Shown: positions 1 through 37,855 of the stretch, piece by piece
How positions within the stretch are numbered: the stretch's first letter is position 1
Layout: every line of letters begins with the position of its first letter
Assembly: GCA_938023075.1 (NCBI GenBank)
Contig: CALHDG010000030.1
Location: 1 to 64,000 of the forward strand
DNA from: an uncultured Chitinophagales bacterium
GTDB lineage: Bacteria; Bacteroidota; Bacteroidia; Chitinophagales; JAHDHT01
Length of the DNA: 64,000 bases
Direction: 5' to 3'
Made by a program: the position numbers and the translations under genes
The notes under the pieces: generated by a model
Databases searched by the model: none
Told to the model about the DNA's origin: nothing
Seen by the model: the letters and a program-made list of their open reading frames with translations, nothing else

Positions 1-3000
1 CCTGGCTGGTCACCATTATCGTTGCCGTCTACGCCATTGTCGGCGGTGTCGGTTGGGGTACTACTTAGGGGGAAATCCATATCGGGTACTGGTATTTGAA
101 CGATGTAATCGCCTGGTAATAAATCTCCAAAGAAATAATCACCGTTCGCATCGGTCATTGTGGTTGCTATTACTGCGCCTGTATCGTCTAATAATTCTAC
201 TGTTACGCCTTCAATTCCGGCTTCGCCTGCATCTTGTGTTCCACTATCATCGGAATCGACGAAGACTGTTGAACCTATGCTCATTAAACAGTCTGTTCTA
301 ATTACTTCTAAAGAATTGGACAGATCGAAACAACCGACTAAATCAGTTGGAGCTGTGTTTCCAACTTCTAAGCCTGTTAAGCCATCTACAAAATTGATAT
401 TCCATATTAAACAAGTACCTACATCTACCCCTTCAAAATTAACATCACTTGGGCTTTGAGGCAAACCTAATATTTCACCAGCGGCATCAGTAACAATCCA
501 TTGGTTGTTTGTAGCTACAGCTCCACTAAATGGAGTTGAAACAATATCTCCTGCAGGTATAAAATCTGGTATACCATCGGTAACACAAAACTCAAATGGT
601 CCGCCATCTAAAGTTACAGCATTAGGAGTGTATCGGATTACCTCAATAGGATCTGACAAATCAAAACATCCTTGCAAATCTGCTGCATTTGCACCTGCTG
701 TTGCGCCGGTTAAACCATCTTCGAAACTTAAATGCCATATTAAACAAGTGCCTGCACCGGCGCCATCAAAATCTACATCAAAGGGTGTTGGTGGCAAACC
801 TAATATATTACCATCAGAATCGGTTACTACCCATTGTGAGTTGGCACCAACATTACCTGCTAAAGTGATGGCTCCTGCCGGAATAAAATCAGCAATACCA
901 TCACCTACACAGAACTCGAATGGACCGCCTGTAATAGTTCCGCTTTCTGGTGTAACACGAATAACTTCTATTGGATCTGACAAATCAAAACATCCTTCTA
1001 AATCGGCTGCATTTGCACCTGCTGTTGCACCGGTTAAACCATCTTCGAAACTTAAATGCCATATTAAACAAGTTCCTGGACCTGCGCCGTCAAAATCTAC
1101 ATCGAAGGGTGTTGCGGGTAAACCTAAAATATTACCATCGGCATCAGTTACTACCCATTGTGAGTTGCCCCCAACATTACCTGCTAAAGTGATGGCTCCT
1201 GCTGGAATAAAATCTGGTATGCCATCGCCTACACAGAATTCGAACGGACCGCCTGTTATTGTTCCGCTTTCTGGAGTAAGCCGAATAACTTCTATTGGAT
1301 CTGACAAATCAAAACATCCATCTAAATCGGCTGCATCAGCACCTACTGTTGCACCGGTTAAACCATCTTCGAAACTTAAATGCCATATTAAACAAGTGCC
1401 TACCCCTGCACCGTCAAAATCTACATCGAAGGGTGTTGCAGGTAAACCTAATATAATACCATTACCATCGGTTACTACATATTGTGAGTTGGTTCCTACT
1501 TCATTTGTTAAAGTTATTTCTCCTGCCGGAATAAAATCAGGTATACCATCGCCTACACAGAATATGAAGGGACCGCCTGCCAATACACCGCCGTCATCAA
1601 TACAGAAGATACCATAATCTATGTGTTGGTCTTCGTCACTATCAGTCATATCAGTGTCGCTTGGGTTATAACAAACTGACACTCCATCATTATTAGGCGA
1701 ATCATCGTCATCTGTTGGACAATCGACCGTGCCATCATTGTTGGCATCGGCATTACCCGTACTGTTGCCGAAACCCGGTGGCAAGTTAGAGATTTGTGTT
1801 TGATAGGTTAGCCCATCATCTAAACAAACGCTTTGTCCTTCTGGAAATTGATTAAATATATAACTACCGTCTGCACCCGTAGTAGTGGTTGCAACTAAAG
1901 TTGTAGAACCATCTGCATTACAAGCCAATAACTCTACCGTAACATTTGGCACACCGGCATCAGTACCTTGACAACCATCGTTATCTAAATCAAAGAAAAC
2001 AACACCGGCTACTTCTTCGCAACATCCATTTAAAGTTGGATCAATCCAAACATCATCGGGTGGTATGAAACAAGTTGGGTCACCATTTAATATAACTAAA
2101 CCGCAAGGATCAACTGCTGCAGCCGGATCGGCAAAGGTAAGGTCATTCACTCCCGGGTTACCGTCGTCACTTCCAGCTTCTTTCGAGTCTGCACAACCAT
2201 CTCCATCACTATCTAAATCTTGAAAATCTGGTATGCCGTCACCGTCTGTATCTTCTGGTGCAGTAGCACAAGCAAAATCTACTAAACCATCTCTACAGCC
2301 ATCTCCATCGGCATCAGGATAAATGGCATTGTTATCATTATCGAGCATACACCTTTCTAAGGTTAGGGTAATATCACCGCATGCCTCTACAGCATCTGGT
2401 ATACCATCGTTATCTGAATCATTATCTAAATGATCAGGAATATTATCGCCGTCGGTATCAATACCAACGCAATCTTCAGCTAAAGTACAGCCTTCGTTAA
2501 ATACTACGGTATATGACCCACCTTCATTATTAGCTGTGGTATTATTATTGAACGTGTAAACTACTTGGTCTACACAATCATCAAATGTTACCGTAAATGC
2601 ATAATCAGCACCTCCCGGACTTTGTAAATTATCATTTTCACTAATTGCAATAGTTGCTCCTGTGTAGACATCATTTAAATTATTAAGTATTTCTGCGCCT
2701 TGATTACTAACTACCATAGTTACCGGTCCAGAAGGTCCGATGGCTGTTATAGTTAGTGAGTCTGTTCTATCTATATCAAAAACATCCATAACTAAATTAC
2801 AAACAGGCTGGCTAAAGCTATAGGTATTTTCTATAAAATTAGCTGCAGTGAGCGAGCCAGTAACACCTTGTCGAATACCTATATCACCGGTGGTTTGAGA
2901 AGTATTAATTTCATCTTCATCTAAGGCTGCTGTACCTCCAAAAATTCGGGTGCCTTGAATAATGGCATTGCCAATGAAAATATTGGCAGCATTAAATTCG

Positions 3001-4755: not shown

Positions 4756-5442
4756 TCAAGAGATATTTTTAATGATGGCAAATTGACCAAATTGACTAAT
4801 ACAATTTATTGGGTAATCCTCATCTGCAATTATGGGATAAGGCATAGCTCGCAAATTAGTTGGGTAGTATAAATGTTTTATTGTAACTGTATGAGACAGC
4901 CCAATTTTATCCCATCCATCAACAACCGTATTGGCAGGGTTTGGTATACCTTTTAATGTGGATTGTAGAATAACCCCATCGCCTTGGGTTGCCAAATCAA
5001 CAGGGTAGCTTGGTGCTACTCCATTGGTTAAATCTCCATCGTTCCATATTTTTATAGTGGCTTGAATTGGGTTTTCAATATCTGTTTCAAATCCGTCTTC
5101 CCAATGGTTGTAATAATTTACGGTGTTAGTTGCAATTACCCCAATAGAAAAATAGCCATTCATTGGGTAATCTATTGTAGAAATATATCGAGAAGATTCT
5201 ATTGACCGGTGGTTTGGATTTGGGTTAATTTCACTAAATCCAACTTTCTGACAATTTTCGTACCCTGTAAATACGGATGTAAAAAAGTCATGAATTTGAC
5301 CTTCTGCAATAGGCAGATAATGTATTTGAATGGGTGCTACATAATCGCAAGATTGCGCCCAGCCTTGCAAGGTTTGACATACCAGAAAAATACCTAGTAC
5401 AGCAAACTTGTAAAAGATTTTCAAAAAGTCATTTTTTCTCAT
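4756..5442 (-). CDS. Secreted protein of unknown function
   Basis: I do not recognise this 228-residue protein. The start at 5442 gives MRKNDFLKIF followed by a hydrophobic stretch and a cut site near GWAQS, a clear signal peptide. An upstream in-frame ATG at 5499 would add 19 residues in front of it and is less likely. The mature part begins SCDYVAPIQIHYLP and contains several Asn/Tyr-rich stretches and three cysteines, as is common for extracellular Bacteroidota proteins. It lies downstream of the start of the giant repeat protein's divergent-looking upstream region but reads in the same direction, 127 bp before that gene's start, so the two could be co-transcribed. No domain assignment is possible from sequence reading. 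Confidence 0.7.
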   Translation of the reverse strand: MRKNDFLKIFYKFAVLGIFLVCQTLQGWAQSCDYVAPIQIHYLPIAEGQIHDFFTSVFTGYENCQKVGFSEINPNPNHRSIESSRYISTIDYPMNGYFSIGVIATNTVNYYNHWEDGFETDIENPIQATIKIWNDGDLTNGVAPSYPVDLATQGDGVILQSTLKGIPNPANTVVDGWDKIGLSHTVTIKHLYYPTNLRAMPYPIIADEDYPINCISQFGQFAIIKNIS

Positions 5443-13362: not shown

Positions 13363-13630
13363 ATGCTACAAACTTTAAGTGGTTTAAAATGTTGTTCTAT
13401 ATGTTTTTAAAAAGTTCAAATCCTATCACGGAAAACCATTATTTTTTTAAATCACCAATTTCTGCGATTGACTGGCTTTGTTTATTGCTCTACATTTGTA
13501 CCATAATTAATTGATAACAAAACAAAAATTAATCAACGCTCAAGGTTCACCCCAAAACTTTAATTTACTAAAATGCAAATTACTTTAAATAACAAAAAAT
13601 AAACAAACACTTAAATGGTAAAAAATCCAA

Positions 13631-13822
13631 ATTACAAAACATCCAAAACTAATTAATCATCTAAAACTAAAAAACATTTGAATGGTTGACGGCTCTAAAA
13701 AAAACACTTAATTATTAAATACCCAAGTTACAAAACATCCAAAGCTAATTAATCATCTAAAACTAAAAAACATTTGAATAGTAGATGGCTCTAAAAAAAA
13801 CATTCAATTATTAAATACCCAA
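13631..13822. repeat. Tandem 96-bp direct repeat in A-rich intergenic DNA
   Basis: Two adjacent units of 96 bp (13631-13726 and 13727-13822) share TTACAAAACATCCAAA and AATTAATCATCTAAAACTAA, with only scattered differences. A third partial unit (TTTACTAAACAACATCCAAA) follows at about 13823. The surrounding 13363-14000 stretch is extremely A-rich on this strand and shows no gene. Confidence 0.8.
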
Positions 13823-14013
13823 TTTACTAAACAACATCCAAAATGATGAACTACTAAACTTGAATTCAGAACAAGACTATAAGACACCCAATTTTTTTTA
13901 CCCTAAAGCTATCATTTGCTCAAAACTTAAATGACCCTGAACTATTTAACATCATTAAAACACCCAATAAGCACCCAAATAACACCCAATGAAGCCCCAT
14001 TTAACTAAAAAAA

Positions 14014-30946: not shown

Positions 30947-31667
30947 TTAGCTTAACTCTTTAATATAATACTCAATAATCCATTGAAAAATACCTAATAC
31001 ATTTTCAATTTCACTTAGAAAATAAACTTTTGTATTTATTTTTAAGAAGTTTTCTTCTAAAACCATAAATAGCCATTCATTGCCTGTGGTCACGCAACCG
31101 TATACTTTATCTAAATGAACATCTTTTTTTTCATTGTACACTTTTGCTCCAATTAATTGAGCAGCACATTGTGGCACACCTAACTCAACATCATTTTTTT
31201 TTGCCTCAACAATTTGTATAATCGGAAAGTTGATATCAAAAGTACCAATGTCTTTTGCAAGAATGAAATCACATTCACCTTTAAGTCCCTTTTCTTCATC
31301 TGCAATTAGTACATCACCGGAATAGATCGTGAAAAATTTATCATTTCTTTTTCTAAGTTCTTTTAAGATGGGTACCACAATCCATTCAGATTTAGCTTTT
31401 TCACTTCGTATAGGCAGTTCTTCCACTTCCTTAAGTTCATTTGAAAAATTTATCATTTCTTTTTCTGAGTTCTTTTAAGATGGGTACCACAATCCATTCA
31501 GATTTAGCTTTTTCACTTCGTATAGGCAGTTCTTCCACTTCCTTAAGTTCATTGACTAAGTTGTTGCTTGGCAGGACAGGTTTAAATTCCGTTAATATAC
31601 TTGTCCTTCTATTGTCTACATTCAGTTTTTCTCCTATTATATCTAAAGTAAAATCACTGTAAGCCAT
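30947..31667 (-). pseudogene. PD-(D/E)XK-like nuclease protein broken by a 112-bp tandem duplication
   Basis: Reading from ATG 31667, the frame gives MAYSDFTLDIIGEKLNVDNR through ELPIRSEKAKSEWIVVPIL to RNDKFF, then stops at 31437. After one copy of the duplicated block the same protein continues: FTIYSGDVLIADEEKGLKGE, CDFILAK, FPIIQIVEAKKNDVELG and YGCVTTGNEWLF to the stop at 30947. Removing either copy restores one frame of about 203 codons. The Asp in ECDF and the Glu-x-Lys in VEAKK fit a PD-(D/E)XK-type fold. Similar unnamed proteins in cyanobacteria and Bacteroidota share the KxRSExIxxPIL and IVEAK motifs. It is the last gene of the defence operon, 36 bp after ptuB. Function unknown; a nuclease role is inferred. 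Confidence 0.8.
31331..31553. repeat. 112-bp near-perfect tandem duplication
   Basis: Positions 31331-31441 recur at 31443-31553 with a single mismatch (A31355 versus G31467) and one spacer base. The unit of 112 bp is not a multiple of three, so it shifts the reading frame of the gene it lies in. Near-identity indicates a recent event. Confidence 0.95.
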
Positions 31668-31703: not shown

Positions 31704-32609
31704 TTAATTCAAATTCTTCTTTCTTCGGCGCAAATAAAATATTTTAACCATACACATCGGTTCATATTTCCCTTCCTGATTAGGCACATCAAAGAATTGC
31801 GTTTTAGAATCTATAAATTGCTTTTTTTGTTCACTTAAAAAGTGTGGTTTGTTAAACTTGTATGATACTTCACTTTCAATATCCTTCCACTTTGCAGCTC
31901 TTTGATTTTTAAGCTTGGTTGTATTAAGATTTAAAGTAAATTCTATATCGTATTGGATAGCAATATTTAACTCCTCTTCGGTTAAATATTCGGCTTTTAA
32001 AAAATATCCTATTTCCCCATTCTTGTATTGCATTGGGGTTGCTTTACTATTTTTAATTTTGTCATACTCAGATTTTAACGTTGCTTTATCATCATAATCA
32101 AAACAATAGATTTGACCGTTGTTAGTATATTTTAATTTGTTGATGTGATTTCTCTCTCTTGGGTCTAAAGTAATAAAGGATTCACCTTTTGCAGTATCGC
32201 AATAATGATTTTCCTGATTATTATCCCCCAAACTGTTACTCTCACCACCCATACAACAGATAAACATATTCTGGTAGTCAGTATCTAATTGATTATTATC
32301 TGAAAATTTTGAAGATTGAGGATGCCAATGTTCTACTTTGGTTTTGCAGTATTTCTTACTTTTCACTTTTTTGAATTCTGGAATTCTATCGTTGCAGTAA
32401 GCACATAAATACCCTTGTTCCTTTAAAAGCTGGGTTTGAAACTCACCAATTTCTGGATTTAGTTTTGTTCCTTCACATCTACAATATTTTTCTCCACTAT
32501 TATCTATCAATTTTCTCAATTCTTCATAATTAACATTGATTTCACTTTGCATACGAAATTCTAAAAGAAAATTTGGTTGGTTATCATTCATTTTATCAAT
32601 GTGCCTCAT
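31704..32609 (-). CDS. ptuB: Septu PtuB-like HNH nuclease
   Basis: The 301-residue protein carries the HNH core typical of PtuB (TIGR02646-like): LLKEQGYLCAYCNDRI with Cys69 and Cys72, then KVEHWHPQSS with His94 and His96, then DYQNMFICCMGG with Asn114 and further cysteines, and YCDTAKG near 137. The two CxxC-type pairs should bind zinc, and the His/Asn residues should form the nuclease centre. In Septu defence, PtuA ATPase controls PtuB, which degrades DNA during phage infection. The ATG overlaps the PtuA stop by 4 bp, so they are co-translated. The Septu assignment rests on the ATPase-HNH pair and motif match. Confidence 0.85.
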   Translation of the reverse strand: MRHIDKMNDNQPNFLLEFRMQSEINVNYEELRKLIDNSGEKYCRCEGTKLNPEIGEFQTQLLKEQGYLCAYCNDRIPEFKKVKSKKYCKTKVEHWHPQSSKFSDNNQLDTDYQNMFICCMGGESNSLGDNNQENHYCDTAKGESFITLDPRERNHINKLKYTNNGQIYCFDYDDKATLKSEYDKIKNSKATPMQYKNGEIGYFLKAEYLTEEELNIAIQYDIEFTLNLNTTKLKNQRAAKWKDIESEVSYKFNKPHFLSEQKKQFIDSKTQFFDVPNQEGKYEPMCMVKIFYLRRRKKNLN

Positions 32610-34078
32610 AATCCCTTGGTATTGTTAAGTTCAGATTTTTTATAATCTAATTCTGATTTTGCCCTTTGTAATAATAAATCTTCTTCACCTTCACCAATTT
32701 CCTCAAGTAAATTTTCGTAAAACTTATTTGACCTAGCTAAGCTATCTTCTGAATCTATTTCACCTATCAATCTAAATAATCTATCTATTTTTTCTTCAAT
32801 TACTTTTGGTCTTAATTCAATATTGCCTTCACCCATTTCAATTAGAATTTCATTTATCGTTCGACCATAATATCTTGCAGTATTTTGAACCTGACCATTC
32901 TTAAAAAAATGTACTTCTTCGCCTTCATAATGGGAAAGTAAAAATGGGGAATGCGTTGAAATGATATAGTGTGATGAATTGCTGACCTGAAGTTGTTGAA
33001 TAAATTTCCCTTGCCATGATGGATGAAGAAATACATCAGGTTCATCCATTAAAACCAATAAATCTTCATTTGCAAACAACTCGAAAAAAGCATTGGTGAT
33101 AAGCAGTTGTTGTTGTCCATCACTTAAATCTCCGATTTCAATATCAACTCCATTATCAATTGATGTAACCAGAATCTTTATATGATTTAACATATTGGTA
33201 GATTGTAACATATCCAAAAGATAGAATAATACCTTTTCTTCAACGTACTCTTCTCGCAAGGCATACCAATCTTCTAAATTAAAAATAATACGAATATTTT
33301 TTTCCACTATAGTTGCATTGCCGTTTTTTTTCAGTAGTTCTAAAAGTCGGAGTAGTTGACCTGTCAATCCCCAAAAATTTTCAGGATTTCCAGTTTTTAT
33401 AAACGAAGGACGGCTAATATGTAATTCCAAAAAGCCTTTTTCCTTCTTCTTTACACCAAGAGAATTTTCTAGAAAATCATTTGCTTGAGTACTGAATTGT
33501 AGTGATAAATAGGCAGCTGATAAAATTTTAAGATGTTTACGAACATCAAAGTAAATTAGCTCTCTATTGGTTATTCGAGACTTTTTGTCAAAATCTAATT
33601 GCTTTTTTGAATTGGGTTTAAATTCATTAGTATAAAGTTTTTCATGAACGTTTCCAATATTTTCTAATCTTCTTGAAAATCCTGAATAATAAATCATTAG
33701 ATTGGGTAAGATGAAATATATATCTCCAAAAATTTCTTCAATTTGAGTTTTGGAATGATTTTCACCATTTATGGATATGTTGAATGGATGATTTGATGCT
33801 TGATTTTCTGTTATGACGATTTCCAATTTTTCTTCTTCACTTAAATTACTTTTTGAACTTGCATTGATAGGGGTATTAATTTCGTATTTTAGTTTAAAAT
33901 TGAAATTAGAAACAGCTACCCATCTGTGCAAAGCACTAAAAATATGGGTAATTATCTCGTAAAATGTTGTCTTACCTGCACCGTTTTTGCCAATAATGAT
34001 AGATAAGTTATCTGTGAAATCTACTGAAAAATCTTTTAAAATCTTGTACTGCTTAACTTGTAAGTCTAATAGTTTCAT
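32606..34078 (-). CDS. ptuA: Septu PtuA-like ATPase
   Basis: The 490-residue protein begins MKLLDLQVKQYKILKDFSVD with Walker A GKNGAGKTT (residues 30-38). It has an ABC-type signature (DLSDGQQQLL, about 335-344) and Walker B LLVLMDEPDVFLHPSW, followed by the switch histidine in YIISTHSPFLLSH. This is the SMC/OLD-like ATPase type found in PtuA. I take the ATG at 34078, where the conserved domain begins; a more distal ATG at 34111 would add a lysine-rich 11-residue leader. It overlaps the hsdS end by 26 bp and the ptuB start by 4 bp. OLD-family ATPases are the main alternative, but no TOPRIM domain is present. Confidence 0.85.
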   Translation of the reverse strand: MKLLDLQVKQYKILKDFSVDFTDNLSIIIGKNGAGKTTFYEIITHIFSALHRWVAVSNFNFKLKYEINTPINASSKSNLSEEEKLEIVITENQASNHPFNISINGENHSKTQIEEIFGDIYFILPNLMIYYSGFSRRLENIGNVHEKLYTNEFKPNSKKQLDFDKKSRITNRELIYFDVRKHLKILSAAYLSLQFSTQANDFLENSLGVKKKEKGFLELHISRPSFIKTGNPENFWGLTGQLLRLLELLKKNGNATIVEKNIRIIFNLEDWYALREEYVEEKVLFYLLDMLQSTNMLNHIKILVTSIDNGVDIEIGDLSDGQQQLLITNAFFELFANEDLLVLMDEPDVFLHPSWQGKFIQQLQVSNSSHYIISTHSPFLLSHYEGEEVHFFKNGQVQNTARYYGRTINEILIEMGEGNIELRPKVIEEKIDRLFRLIGEIDSEDSLARSNKFYENLLEEIGEGEEDLLLQRAKSELDYKKSELNNTKGL

Positions 34079-35462
34079 TTTTTTCTTTTGTTTTAAAAAT
34101 AGCTTTTTCAAAATTTACTTGAGCACTGATAATTAGTTTAGTCGATTTATTTTTTAGCTTATTGATTTCATTATTACTTTTCCGAAATCTACAAACCAAA
34201 TCATATTGAACTTCCATAGGAGGAATCGGAAAAGATATTTTTAATAGATTTTGTATCCCAAGTTCAGTTTGCTTAGTAGACTTGGCAGATTTTAAATTTG
34301 CTATTTGGCTTTGCCCAAAGTAACTGTTAAACAGATATGTAAAATATTCAGGATTAATTTTGTCAGTATTTAACCTTAAAAGTAAAATATGGCTATCATA
34401 TAGCCAACCACTGTATACTGATTTAATGTAAGTAGCTCTACCTATGGTGCCTTCGCCGGTAGAATTAACAATAACATCTCCAACTTTTGTAAGATATTTT
34501 TTATTTATATTATTATACCAATTATCATTAACTTTCTTAGCAAATCTGAAATCAATTTTATTCCAACGATTACATTTTTGATTAAGAATAAATTTTGTGC
34601 CTTCAGAATCATACTTGGGACTTTTACCCCTAAATGTCTCAATATATAAATGCGGGTTATTTTCAAAGTTCATTATATCAAATTTATAAGAAATATAGCT
34701 TATTGAATTGGTTAAATTATCAACCCCCCAATTGTAAATTGAATTAAAATCAATTAATTGAAATATTTTTTTTTCAAAACTATTTACATCTCTTTTTATT
34801 CCTAATAGGGATTTCGTATAATTTTTAATATCTACTTTTATTTGTTCTACTTCTTTGTATATTTTTTCTACCAAGTTTAATTTTCTTAAATATGACTTAA
34901 CCAATACTTTCTGTTCTTCCAGAGGAGGAAGCGGAATTTTAAAATTCAGAAAAGTCAGTAGATTTATTCTTTGCCTGCCTGTTGTTCCAGAACTAGCTAA
35001 TTGACATAGTTCTCTGAAACTACTTAAGTTAGTTAGCAGTGTAAAAAAATAGGGAAGTATTTTATCTAAATTAATATCAAATGCTAAAAAATCTTGCGTA
35101 ACTACTGCTCCTTCTAAATCCGTAGGGATGATTCCGAAAGCTCCATTTCTTGCATCAATTTTAGACATAATGAACTGCCCAGATCTAACATAATATTGTG
35201 TTTTTGTTCCTATATCTTTACCTAAAACTTCATCCCTTTGGATAACTCCTTTATTGTATAACCTTATAGTTACTCTCTTATATAAAACATCACTTTTTAT
35301 TTGCGTTTTTTCTTTAACTCTTTGAATTAAGTTTCCTATACTTTCTAACGGAATACCTTTTTGAAAAATGAAATCACTTTGCTGTATGGATCCTACGCTC
35401 CAATTCAACATTGTATGGAAAGGAAAAATATTAATACGTTCATATGTAATTTTACTAACCAT
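34053..35462 (-). CDS. hsdS: Type I-like restriction specificity subunit
   Basis: The 469-residue protein has two target-recognition domains, each followed by a long helix. The first half ends IPLPPLEEQKVLVKSYLRKL (about 180-200) and the second ISFPIPPMEVQYDLVCRF (about 415-435), the usual conserved-helix starts of HsdS. Such subunits read a bipartite DNA sequence. I prefer the ATG at 35462: it lies in the ATGGTTAG overlap with the end of the methylase gene and gives the usual N-terminus, whereas the ORF could extend to 35489. Two domains imply an asymmetric target. It overlaps the PtuA gene downstream. Confidence 0.88.
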   Translation of the reverse strand: MVSKITYERINIFPFHTMLNWSVGSIQQSDFIFQKGIPLESIGNLIQRVKEKTQIKSDVLYKRVTIRLYNKGVIQRDEVLGKDIGTKTQYYVRSGQFIMSKIDARNGAFGIIPTDLEGAVVTQDFLAFDINLDKILPYFFTLLTNLSSFRELCQLASSGTTGRQRINLLTFLNFKIPLPPLEEQKVLVKSYLRKLNLVEKIYKEVEQIKVDIKNYTKSLLGIKRDVNSFEKKIFQLIDFNSIYNWGVDNLTNSISYISYKFDIMNFENNPHLYIETFRGKSPKYDSEGTKFILNQKCNRWNKIDFRFAKKVNDNWYNNINKKYLTKVGDVIVNSTGEGTIGRATYIKSVYSGWLYDSHILLLRLNTDKINPEYFTYLFNSYFGQSQIANLKSAKSTKQTELGIQNLLKISFPIPPMEVQYDLVCRFRKSNNEINKLKNKSTKLIISAQVNFEKAIFKTKEKNETIRLTS

Positions 35463-37764
35463 AAAAAGAAAGTGGTTTACCATTACCAACTACTCGCATT
35501 ATTTTTTCACTACCATTTAAATGATAACTAATTTCATCTTTTGAATACTCCCATAGTTTTACTTCTTTTCGATAACTCCCAAATTCTTTGGCAACCTCTA
35601 TTAGCTCATTTTCACACGATGCCCCAGTGCTGCTAATTCCTGCTTTTTCAACCTTTATTATCGGAATAGGGTAATCAAATTCCCTTTTGAAAAAAGATTT
35701 AATTTCTGATTCAATTCGATTGTTTATTAATTTTAAATCAAACTTGTATTTCTGTCTCAACTTCTTAAGTCCTTCTTTGTCTTTATTATATTTAAAATGA
35801 TCTCTCTGCTTTTCGAACCCGTTGTTTAGTTCATCAAGTTCTGTTTGAAATTTTTCATTGGCGGTTACGGTAGCTTTCTCCATAATTTTATGATATAGTT
35901 TTTTTTCATCCGCAGTAAATTTTTTAAAGAATATAATGCTTGGCTTCACATTAGCACCGGAAGCTATAAAAACGTCTTTTGGTATAGAGGTAATATTGAT
36001 TATTTTTGCTTTACTTTCTACATAATCTCTTACTTTTTCTAATTGGATACCACTCAATACACCATCAGGAAGTACAATACCCATCCTACCACCAGGTTTC
36101 AATAGGTTTAAACAACGTTCAATAAATAAAATTTCGGATAACCCTCTTCCCATTTTACCTGTATCAAATAAGTCAATTATTGGTTTACCCTTGTTGCCTT
36201 TTGTATCTGTGAACTCAATCCATTCTTTTAAAGGTTTAACCACTTTTTCTTCATACTGTGGATATTTATTTTTGTAAATTTCAATTTTACCTTCATTAGG
36301 AATATCTGCTAATGATACTCTAAGATTTCTGCTAATACGAGAACCAAAAGGGGGATTGGTTAAGATTACATCAAATCTTTCTTCAAAAATTCCATTAATA
36401 TTCAAGAGTCCGTCATTATGATGTACACCACCATGACCATCGCCGTGCATAATCATATTCATCTTTGCAGTACGTGCCATTCGAGGATTTGCATCCGTAC
36501 CATAAATGCATTTGTGAGATAAGTTATATAATCTTCCTTTTTTGTTTTGTAAATCAAATTCTTTATCTAATTGTATAAATAATTTATTTTCTTTTTGTTT
36601 AATTTTATTTTGCTCATCCGAAGTTTTTTTATCAAAAGTCTTACCTCTTATTATTTTTCTGACTTTTGTTTTTTCTTTTTTAATAGAAAGTTCAATTTTT
36701 TCTCTTATATAGTCAAAAACCTTAATTAAAAATCCCCCGCTACCGCAACATGGGTCGCATATTAATTCGTTTTCCTGAGGATCCAGCACTTCAACCATAT
36801 AATCTACAAGGGTACGTGGTGTAAAAAATTGCCCTAACTCTCCTCTAAAAGTTTTACCTAAAAATTCTTCAAAAGCAAGCCCTTTAATATCGTCAGAGGT
36901 TGCTGATAAATTAAACTTTTCAAGTTCAGTTACAATTGATTCGAAGCTCATTCTTTTCAATTTTATTTGATCAGTAGCTTCAAATAATTCATCCTGTTGA
37001 TATTCCCTTTTGGTCTCATCAAAAAGATATTGCATATAATCTTTTGCAGCGTGAGGTGCGCTTATTTCAAGGCTTGGTCTAATTGTCTTTTCATATTTCT
37101 GCTCATCTCTTAAAAAAACATCTTTTGAAAACAACATTTCAGTATTATTATTTCTTTCGTGCAAAATTTTCATAAAAAGAATTTTGCTTATTTCATCAAA
37201 TGCTGCTTCGGGAGATAGTTTGTCGTTATTCCGAATTATATTATGACATTTAAATAATAATTTACTGAATTCGTCTCTGGTGAATTTTTTAGTCTCATTT
37301 ATGAATTTTTTTATTTGGGAATTACTTTTAATTATTGAAGCTTTTGGAATATCTTTTAAATAGTCTAATTGTGGTGTTTCTGACGAAAACTCTGGAATAT
37401 GGAATACTTTAGTCTGTTTCAAATTCTTAGCAATAAAAAAATCTGCTTCTACCGCCTCGGCAAATTTTAAGCCTGTTAGATAATCTTCTTTTTTAATGGT
37501 GATATGTTCTGCTTTACATTCAACTGCTACAATAATTGAAGGCTTCTTTTTTTTATTTTTTTCGTCTGCATTTTTCCATATTGCTACATCGGCTTTAAAC
37601 CTTCGTTTGATTTGTATGTCTTGTCCCAACTGATTTAGACTGTAGCCGTATTTTTCAACAAGTTCTAAAATGAATTTTTGCTTCAATTCCTCTTCCTGAG
37701 TACACAAGACCCATTTTCCTAAAAGTGGAGCATATATGTTACCATCTTTTATTTTAATTTTCAT
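35455..37764 (-). CDS. hsdM: Fused restriction nuclease-N6-adenine methyltransferase
   Basis: The 769-residue protein joins two activities. Residues about 20-110 form an HSDR_N-like PD-(D/E)XK domain: RRFKADVAIWKN with Asp59 and VAVECKAE with Glu82 and Lys84. Residues about 190-560 form an N6-adenine methylase with a helical N-terminal part, AdoMet-binding motif DPCCGSGGF (337-345) and catalytic NPPF (470-473). The ATG at 37764 is chosen because the usual domain start (MKIKIKDGNIYAPLLGKW) follows; an upstream ATG at 37797 adds an unlikely leader. With HsdS and no helicase-type HsdR, this resembles BcgI-like enzymes in which one chain cuts and methylates. It starts the operon. Confidence 0.88.
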   Translation of the reverse strand: MKIKIKDGNIYAPLLGKWVLCTQEEELKQKFILELVEKYGYSLNQLGQDIQIKRRFKADVAIWKNADEKNKKKKPSIIVAVECKAEHITIKKEDYLTGLKFAEAVEADFFIAKNLKQTKVFHIPEFSSETPQLDYLKDIPKASIIKSNSQIKKFINETKKFTRDEFSKLLFKCHNIIRNNDKLSPEAAFDEISKILFMKILHERNNNTEMLFSKDVFLRDEQKYEKTIRPSLEISAPHAAKDYMQYLFDETKREYQQDELFEATDQIKLKRMSFESIVTELEKFNLSATSDDIKGLAFEEFLGKTFRGELGQFFTPRTLVDYMVEVLDPQENELICDPCCGSGGFLIKVFDYIREKIELSIKKEKTKVRKIIRGKTFDKKTSDEQNKIKQKENKLFIQLDKEFDLQNKKGRLYNLSHKCIYGTDANPRMARTAKMNMIMHGDGHGGVHHNDGLLNINGIFEERFDVILTNPPFGSRISRNLRVSLADIPNEGKIEIYKNKYPQYEEKVVKPLKEWIEFTDTKGNKGKPIIDLFDTGKMGRGLSEILFIERCLNLLKPGGRMGIVLPDGVLSGIQLEKVRDYVESKAKIINITSIPKDVFIASGANVKPSIIFFKKFTADEKKLYHKIMEKATVTANEKFQTELDELNNGFEKQRDHFKYNKDKEGLKKLRQKYKFDLKLINNRIESEIKSFFKREFDYPIPIIKVEKAGISSTGASCENELIEVAKEFGSYRKEVKLWEYSKDEISYHLNGSEKIMRVVGNGKPLSFYG

Positions 37765-37855
37765 ATTTTTATAACTACAAATAACTATCAACTTCAAGCT
37801 GATATAATACTAAATTAAATTATTAATGTTACAAATCATAATATCATGTTTATCT

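What the first reader, a model, noticed from the sequence alone, without database searches (positions are those of the whole stretch)
31331..31553. 112-bp tandem duplication that could switch a defence gene on and off
Two 111-bp blocks one base apart differ at a single position and cause a frameshift; excising one unit restores a full reading frame of about 203 codons. Long near-perfect direct repeats are prone to deletion by slippage or recombination, so the gene may be phase-variable. It is the last gene of a defence operon, where such switches are often found.
Basis: partly seen in the sequence, partly recalled or inferred. Interest (0 to 1): 0.72.

Follow-up and report, generated by a model that had tools for sequence, protein, structure and literature searches.

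The report
Duplicated stretch splits a nuclease gene
A 112-base stretch inside a bacterial nuclease-like gene has been copied twice in a row and splits the reading frame in two; it is a real but probably one-off mutation that could reverse by chance, with no sign of an evolved on/off switch and no sign that the gene belongs to the defence operon beside it.

Summary
A 112-bp unit occurs twice head to tail (31330-31441, 31442-31553) with one mismatch. It lies in a minus-strand gene (ATG 31667, stop at 30947) and shifts the frame: a 76-aa ORF (31667-31437) overlaps by 20 nt a 169-aa ORF (31456-30947). One copy fewer would give 202 aa, the usual length of 40 full-length homologues. None of those has the duplication, so the single copy is ancestral.

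Deletion between the copies could restore the frame, as known for pneumococcal capsule genes, but nothing shows it happens here or was selected. No strain of the same genus is held and no reads are available.

"Last gene of a defence operon" does not hold. The HsdM-HsdS-PtuA-PtuB operon occurs in a relative followed directly by valS, with no nuclease gene. No homologue of the nuclease found here has those genes nearby. It is a scattered, often multi-copy PD-(D/E)XK family that decays by varied lesions.

"Off" is also uncertain: the 169-aa ORF keeps the whole predicted nuclease core and lacks only a conserved N-terminal segment of about 34 aa.

Verdict: an ordinary intragenic tandem duplication; low interest.

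The parts
31330..31441 (-). Second (downstream in gene sense) copy of the 112-bp unit
   Evidence: 111/112 identical to the other copy
31442..31553 (-). First (upstream in gene sense) copy of the 112-bp unit; the mismatch G31467 (gene strand CTC against CTT) is synonymous in the original frame
31437..31667 (-). ORF1, 76 aa: conserved N-terminus MAYSDFTL..., first copy, then TGA just past the junction
30947..31456 (-). ORF2, 169 aa: PD-(D/E)XK nuclease core, PADLOC PD_DExK PDLC01472 E 2.5e-41; starts 20 nt before the end of ORF1
31704..32609 (-). PtuB-like HNH nuclease, last gene of the neighbouring defence operon, 36 bp upstream of ORF1
32606..34111 (-). PtuA-like AAA ATPase
34053..35489 (-). 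HsdS-like specificity subunit
35455..37797 (-). HsdM-like N6-adenine methyltransferase with an N-terminal HSDR_N_2 domain

Best explanation
A single 112-bp tandem duplication arose in a stand-alone PD-(D/E)XK nuclease-family gene that lies next to, but does not belong to, an HsdM-HsdS-PtuA-PtuB operon. It splits the 202-codon gene into ORF1 (N-terminal segment, 76 aa) and an overlapping ORF2 (nuclease core, 169 aa). The full-length protein is lost, though a truncated one may still be made. Homologous deletion or replication slippage between the copies could undo it at low frequency, as for any tandem repeat of this size. It is best read as a recent, accidentally reversible loss or truncation in a gene family that often decays, not an evolved switch. 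Shown: the duplication, the frames, the ancestral single copy, the lack of operon linkage. Inferred: recency, reversibility, loss of function.
For: Repeat and frames. Homologues: 40 full-length proteins of 199-207 aa, all single-copy, with the conserved N-terminus M-x-Y-S-D-F-T-L; no tandem duplication inside any homologue gene. An intact 202-aa paralogue lies in the same genome at C265. Operon membership is contradicted by L159 (PtuB followed by valS) and by the lack of PtuA/PtuB/HsdS/HsdM near the homologues. Other homologues are broken by different lesions: a nonsense codon in L022, frameshifts in L026 and L027, a remnant in L024. ORF2 keeps the catalytic motifs. Reversible capsule-gene duplications in pneumococcus are reported in PMC4243769 and deletions between direct repeats in PMC4627823.
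Against: The two copies differ at one base, which hints that the duplication has lasted some time despite the expected instability (or that the base change came with the duplication). No other damage is visible downstream, which would also fit a gene that is regularly switched back on. No close strain or read data could be examined.
Confidence: 0.68

Rival explanations
1. Phase-variable switch: the repeat expands and contracts often enough that the population holds one-copy (full-length, on) and two-copy (split, off) cells, and this is selected for.
For: 112-bp near-perfect tandem repeat, frame-breaking; loss of one unit gives the ancestral length. Reversible intragenic duplications switching a gene are known in pneumococcal capsule loci (Waite 2001, 2003, cited in PMC4243769). 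The rest of the gene is undamaged.
Against: Duplication absent from 40 full-length homologues. No direct microhomology at the junction to recreate it, so on-to-off switching would be rare. A nuclease core remains encoded in the supposed off state. The gene is not part of the defence operon.
Confidence: 0.09
2. Truncated but working gene: ORF2 is translated from ATG 31456 by termination-reinitiation at the overlapping end of ORF1, giving an active nuclease without the N-terminal segment.
For: 20-nt overlap of ORF1 stop and ORF2 start; 70% A in the 20 nt before the ATG. Predicted fold of ORF2 is confident, pLDDT 91.5. In VIA alignments the restriction nucleases BpuSI (Z 12.7, model residues 34-201) and DrdV (30-197) match only from about where ORF2 begins.
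Against: The lost segment is conserved (M1, Y3 nearly invariant) and predicted at pLDDT 95-98 in the full-length homologue, so it probably matters. The first 10 residues of ORF2 have pLDDT 63. No expression data.
Confidence: 0.12
3. Assembly artefact: the true genome has one copy.
For: The genome is a draft of 288 contigs; short tandem repeats are a known source of error in short-read drafts (own knowledge).
Against: The copies differ at one base and are shorter than usual short reads; among 1.05 Mb of the same assembly this is the only such repeat in a coding gene, so there is no general tendency to it.
Confidence: 0.11

Closest known systems
Spontaneous intragenic tandem duplications in pneumococcal capsule genes (cap3A, cap8E, tts; Waite et al. 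2001, 2003, as cited in PMC4243769 and PMC4022640)
   Same: Frame-breaking tandem duplication of unique coding sequence that can in principle revert exactly
   Different: There switching and reversion were observed in culture; here only one assembled sequence exists, and the gene is a nuclease-family gene
PD-(D/E)XK family PADLOC PDLC01472 (PD_DExK, listed as CRISPR-associated accessory)
   Same: ORF2 matches 140 of 146 model positions, E 2.5e-41
   Different: The window copy is split by the duplication; no Septu or HsdM/HsdS linkage was seen for its homologues in the flanks examined
Septu (PtuA/PtuB) and type I restriction-modification, with resemblance to MADS
   Same: The neighbouring operon encodes HsdM, HsdS, PtuA-like and PtuB-like proteins
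   Different: The nuclease gene is not part of it: the relative in L159 lacks it

Membership tests
Phase variation by reversible intragenic tandem duplication | Near-perfect tandem repeat breaking a reading frame, one-copy allele in frame | tested here: met
Phase variation by reversible intragenic tandem duplication | Both alleles observed in one population or strain lineage, with measurable switching | not testable with these tools
   no reads and no genome of the same genus held; the one other family genome has no match
Phase variation by reversible intragenic tandem duplication | Repeat kept or recurring in related copies of the gene (expected of an evolved switch) | tested here: not met
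   40 full-length homologues single-copy
PD-(D/E)XK nuclease family PDLC01472 | Profile match over the domain with the D...E-x-K motif (GECDF, VEAKK) | tested here: met
PD-(D/E)XK nuclease family PDLC01472 | Nuclease activity | not testable with these tools
   no assay possible; fold comparison only
Member of the HsdM-HsdS-PtuA-PtuB defence operon | Gene present with the operon in relatives | tested here: not met
   L159: PtuB followed by valS, no nuclease; no operon genes near nuclease homologues

The most novel reading that the evidence does not exclude
The population of this bacterium holds one-copy and two-copy cells, and the 112-bp repeat acts as a selected contingency switch between a full-length nuclease and a split or truncated one.
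Probability: 0.07. Interest if true: 0.5.

Novelty: new member of a known kind. Interest (0 to 1): 0.15.

Why it matters
If a switch were shown, it would add a phage-defence-type nuclease to the few genes turned on and off by long tandem duplications. As it stands it is a useful caution: a frame-breaking repeat beside a defence operon is not by itself a switch, and adjacency is not membership.

Tried and rejected
Relatives: the only other genome of the family has no match, and viral contigs gave no relative, so no allele comparison within the species was possible. Plasmid hits are distant cyanobacterial homologues, under 41% identity. PDB sequence search, Pfam and NCBIfam found nothing significant for ORF2. 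An 83-bp repeat in L109 (positions 5190-5355) is a minisatellite-like array with no clear coding gene. Considered: a 111-bp in-frame duplication at a shared TGA plus one extra T at the junction (X, J and Y) instead of one blunt 112-bp event; the two cannot be told apart. Ribosomal frameshifting from ORF1 to ORF2 was considered and no known signal was seen by eye. The promoter scan gave 7 sites against 4.5 expected, uninformative. A paper search for an HsdS-Septu-HNH system returned nothing.

Full report
Observation. The window holds two head-to-tail copies of a 112-bp unit at 31330-31441 and 31442-31553, 111 of 112 bases identical. The periodicity ends exactly at 224 bp. In 20 simulated windows of the same dinucleotide make-up the longest same-lag run was 12-16 bp, against 86 bp here. 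The repeat is therefore not a chance match. In about 1.05 Mb of the same draft genome it is the only long near-perfect tandem repeat found to break a coding gene; the other long ones are an 83-bp array in a stretch without a clear gene and repeats of a length divisible by three.

Effect on the gene. The gene is on the minus strand, ATG at 31667, last stop at 30947. Because 112 is not a multiple of three, the frame is split: ORF1 (76 aa) ends at TGA 31439-31437, just past the junction; ORF2 (169 aa) begins at ATG 31456 and overlaps ORF1 by 20 nt. The span less one unit is 609 nt, or 202 aa plus stop. This was settled by arithmetic. The single mismatch is synonymous in the original frame.

Ancestral state. 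Homologues were gathered from genome contigs and from the order. The 40 full-length ones are 199-207 aa, most often about 202, begin with the conserved M-x-Y-S-D-F-T-L, and are single-copy. No tandem duplication lies inside any homologue gene. The same genome has an intact paralogue at C265. The duplication is therefore derived and so far unique.

What the gene is. ORF2 matches PADLOC PD_DExK with E 2.5e-41 and keeps the motifs GECDF and VEAKK. A model of the full-length homologue in L007 has mean pLDDT 94.7. VIA alignment places restriction nucleases (BpuSI, Z 12.7; DrdV, Z 11.8) on residues from about 30-34 onward, which is about where ORF2 starts. ORF2 alone is predicted at pLDDT 91.5. The core is thus still encoded; the missing N-terminal segment is conserved and confidently folded, so its loss probably matters, but this is inference.

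Operon. Upstream lie PtuB-like, PtuA-like, HsdS and HsdM genes. In G733 the same four genes (63, 73, 41 and 75% identity) are followed directly by valS (named by reading the translation), with no nuclease gene. None of the homologue loci carries these four genes in the flanks examined, up to 6 kb in one set and about 1.5 kb in the other. The family is scattered, with up to 12 matches reported per genome, and other members are broken by nonsense, frameshift or truncation.

Mechanism. Deletion between direct repeats by slippage or recombination is established in bacteria (PMC4627823), and reversible capsule-gene duplications are reported in pneumococcus (PMC4243769; PMC4022640). Reversion here is thus plausible. 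The forward step is not programmed: the junction shows no direct microhomology, although a shared TGA plus one extra T is possible. No population evidence could be obtained. The best reading is a recent, accidentally reversible split of a dispensable-looking gene.

Noticed in passing
window 31704-37797; L159 5831-11916: Four-gene HsdM(with HSDR_N_2)-HsdS-PtuA-PtuB system without an HsdR gene, conserved in a second genome; HsdS is far less conserved (41%) than the other three (63-75%). It may be a methylation-linked Septu variant.
   Followed up: partly
model of the L007 homologue (L007:5881-6486): The full-length fold, N-terminus included, aligns best with two mitochondrial ribosomal chains (entry chains 5 and s, Z about 14-15, 190-197 residues aligned), above the restriction nucleases. 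A paper search was not read further.
   Followed up: partly
L023 4367-7133: Four tandem paralogues of the nuclease family in one locus.
   Followed up: no
L022, L026, L027, L024: Nuclease homologues broken by nonsense, frameshift or truncation.
   Followed up: partly
window 548-1579: 324-bp tandem repeat, 3.2 copies, 86% matches.
   Followed up: no
window 13601-13843: 96-bp tandem repeat, 2.5 copies.
   Followed up: no
L109 5190-5355: 83-bp repeat within a minisatellite-like array.
   Followed up: partly
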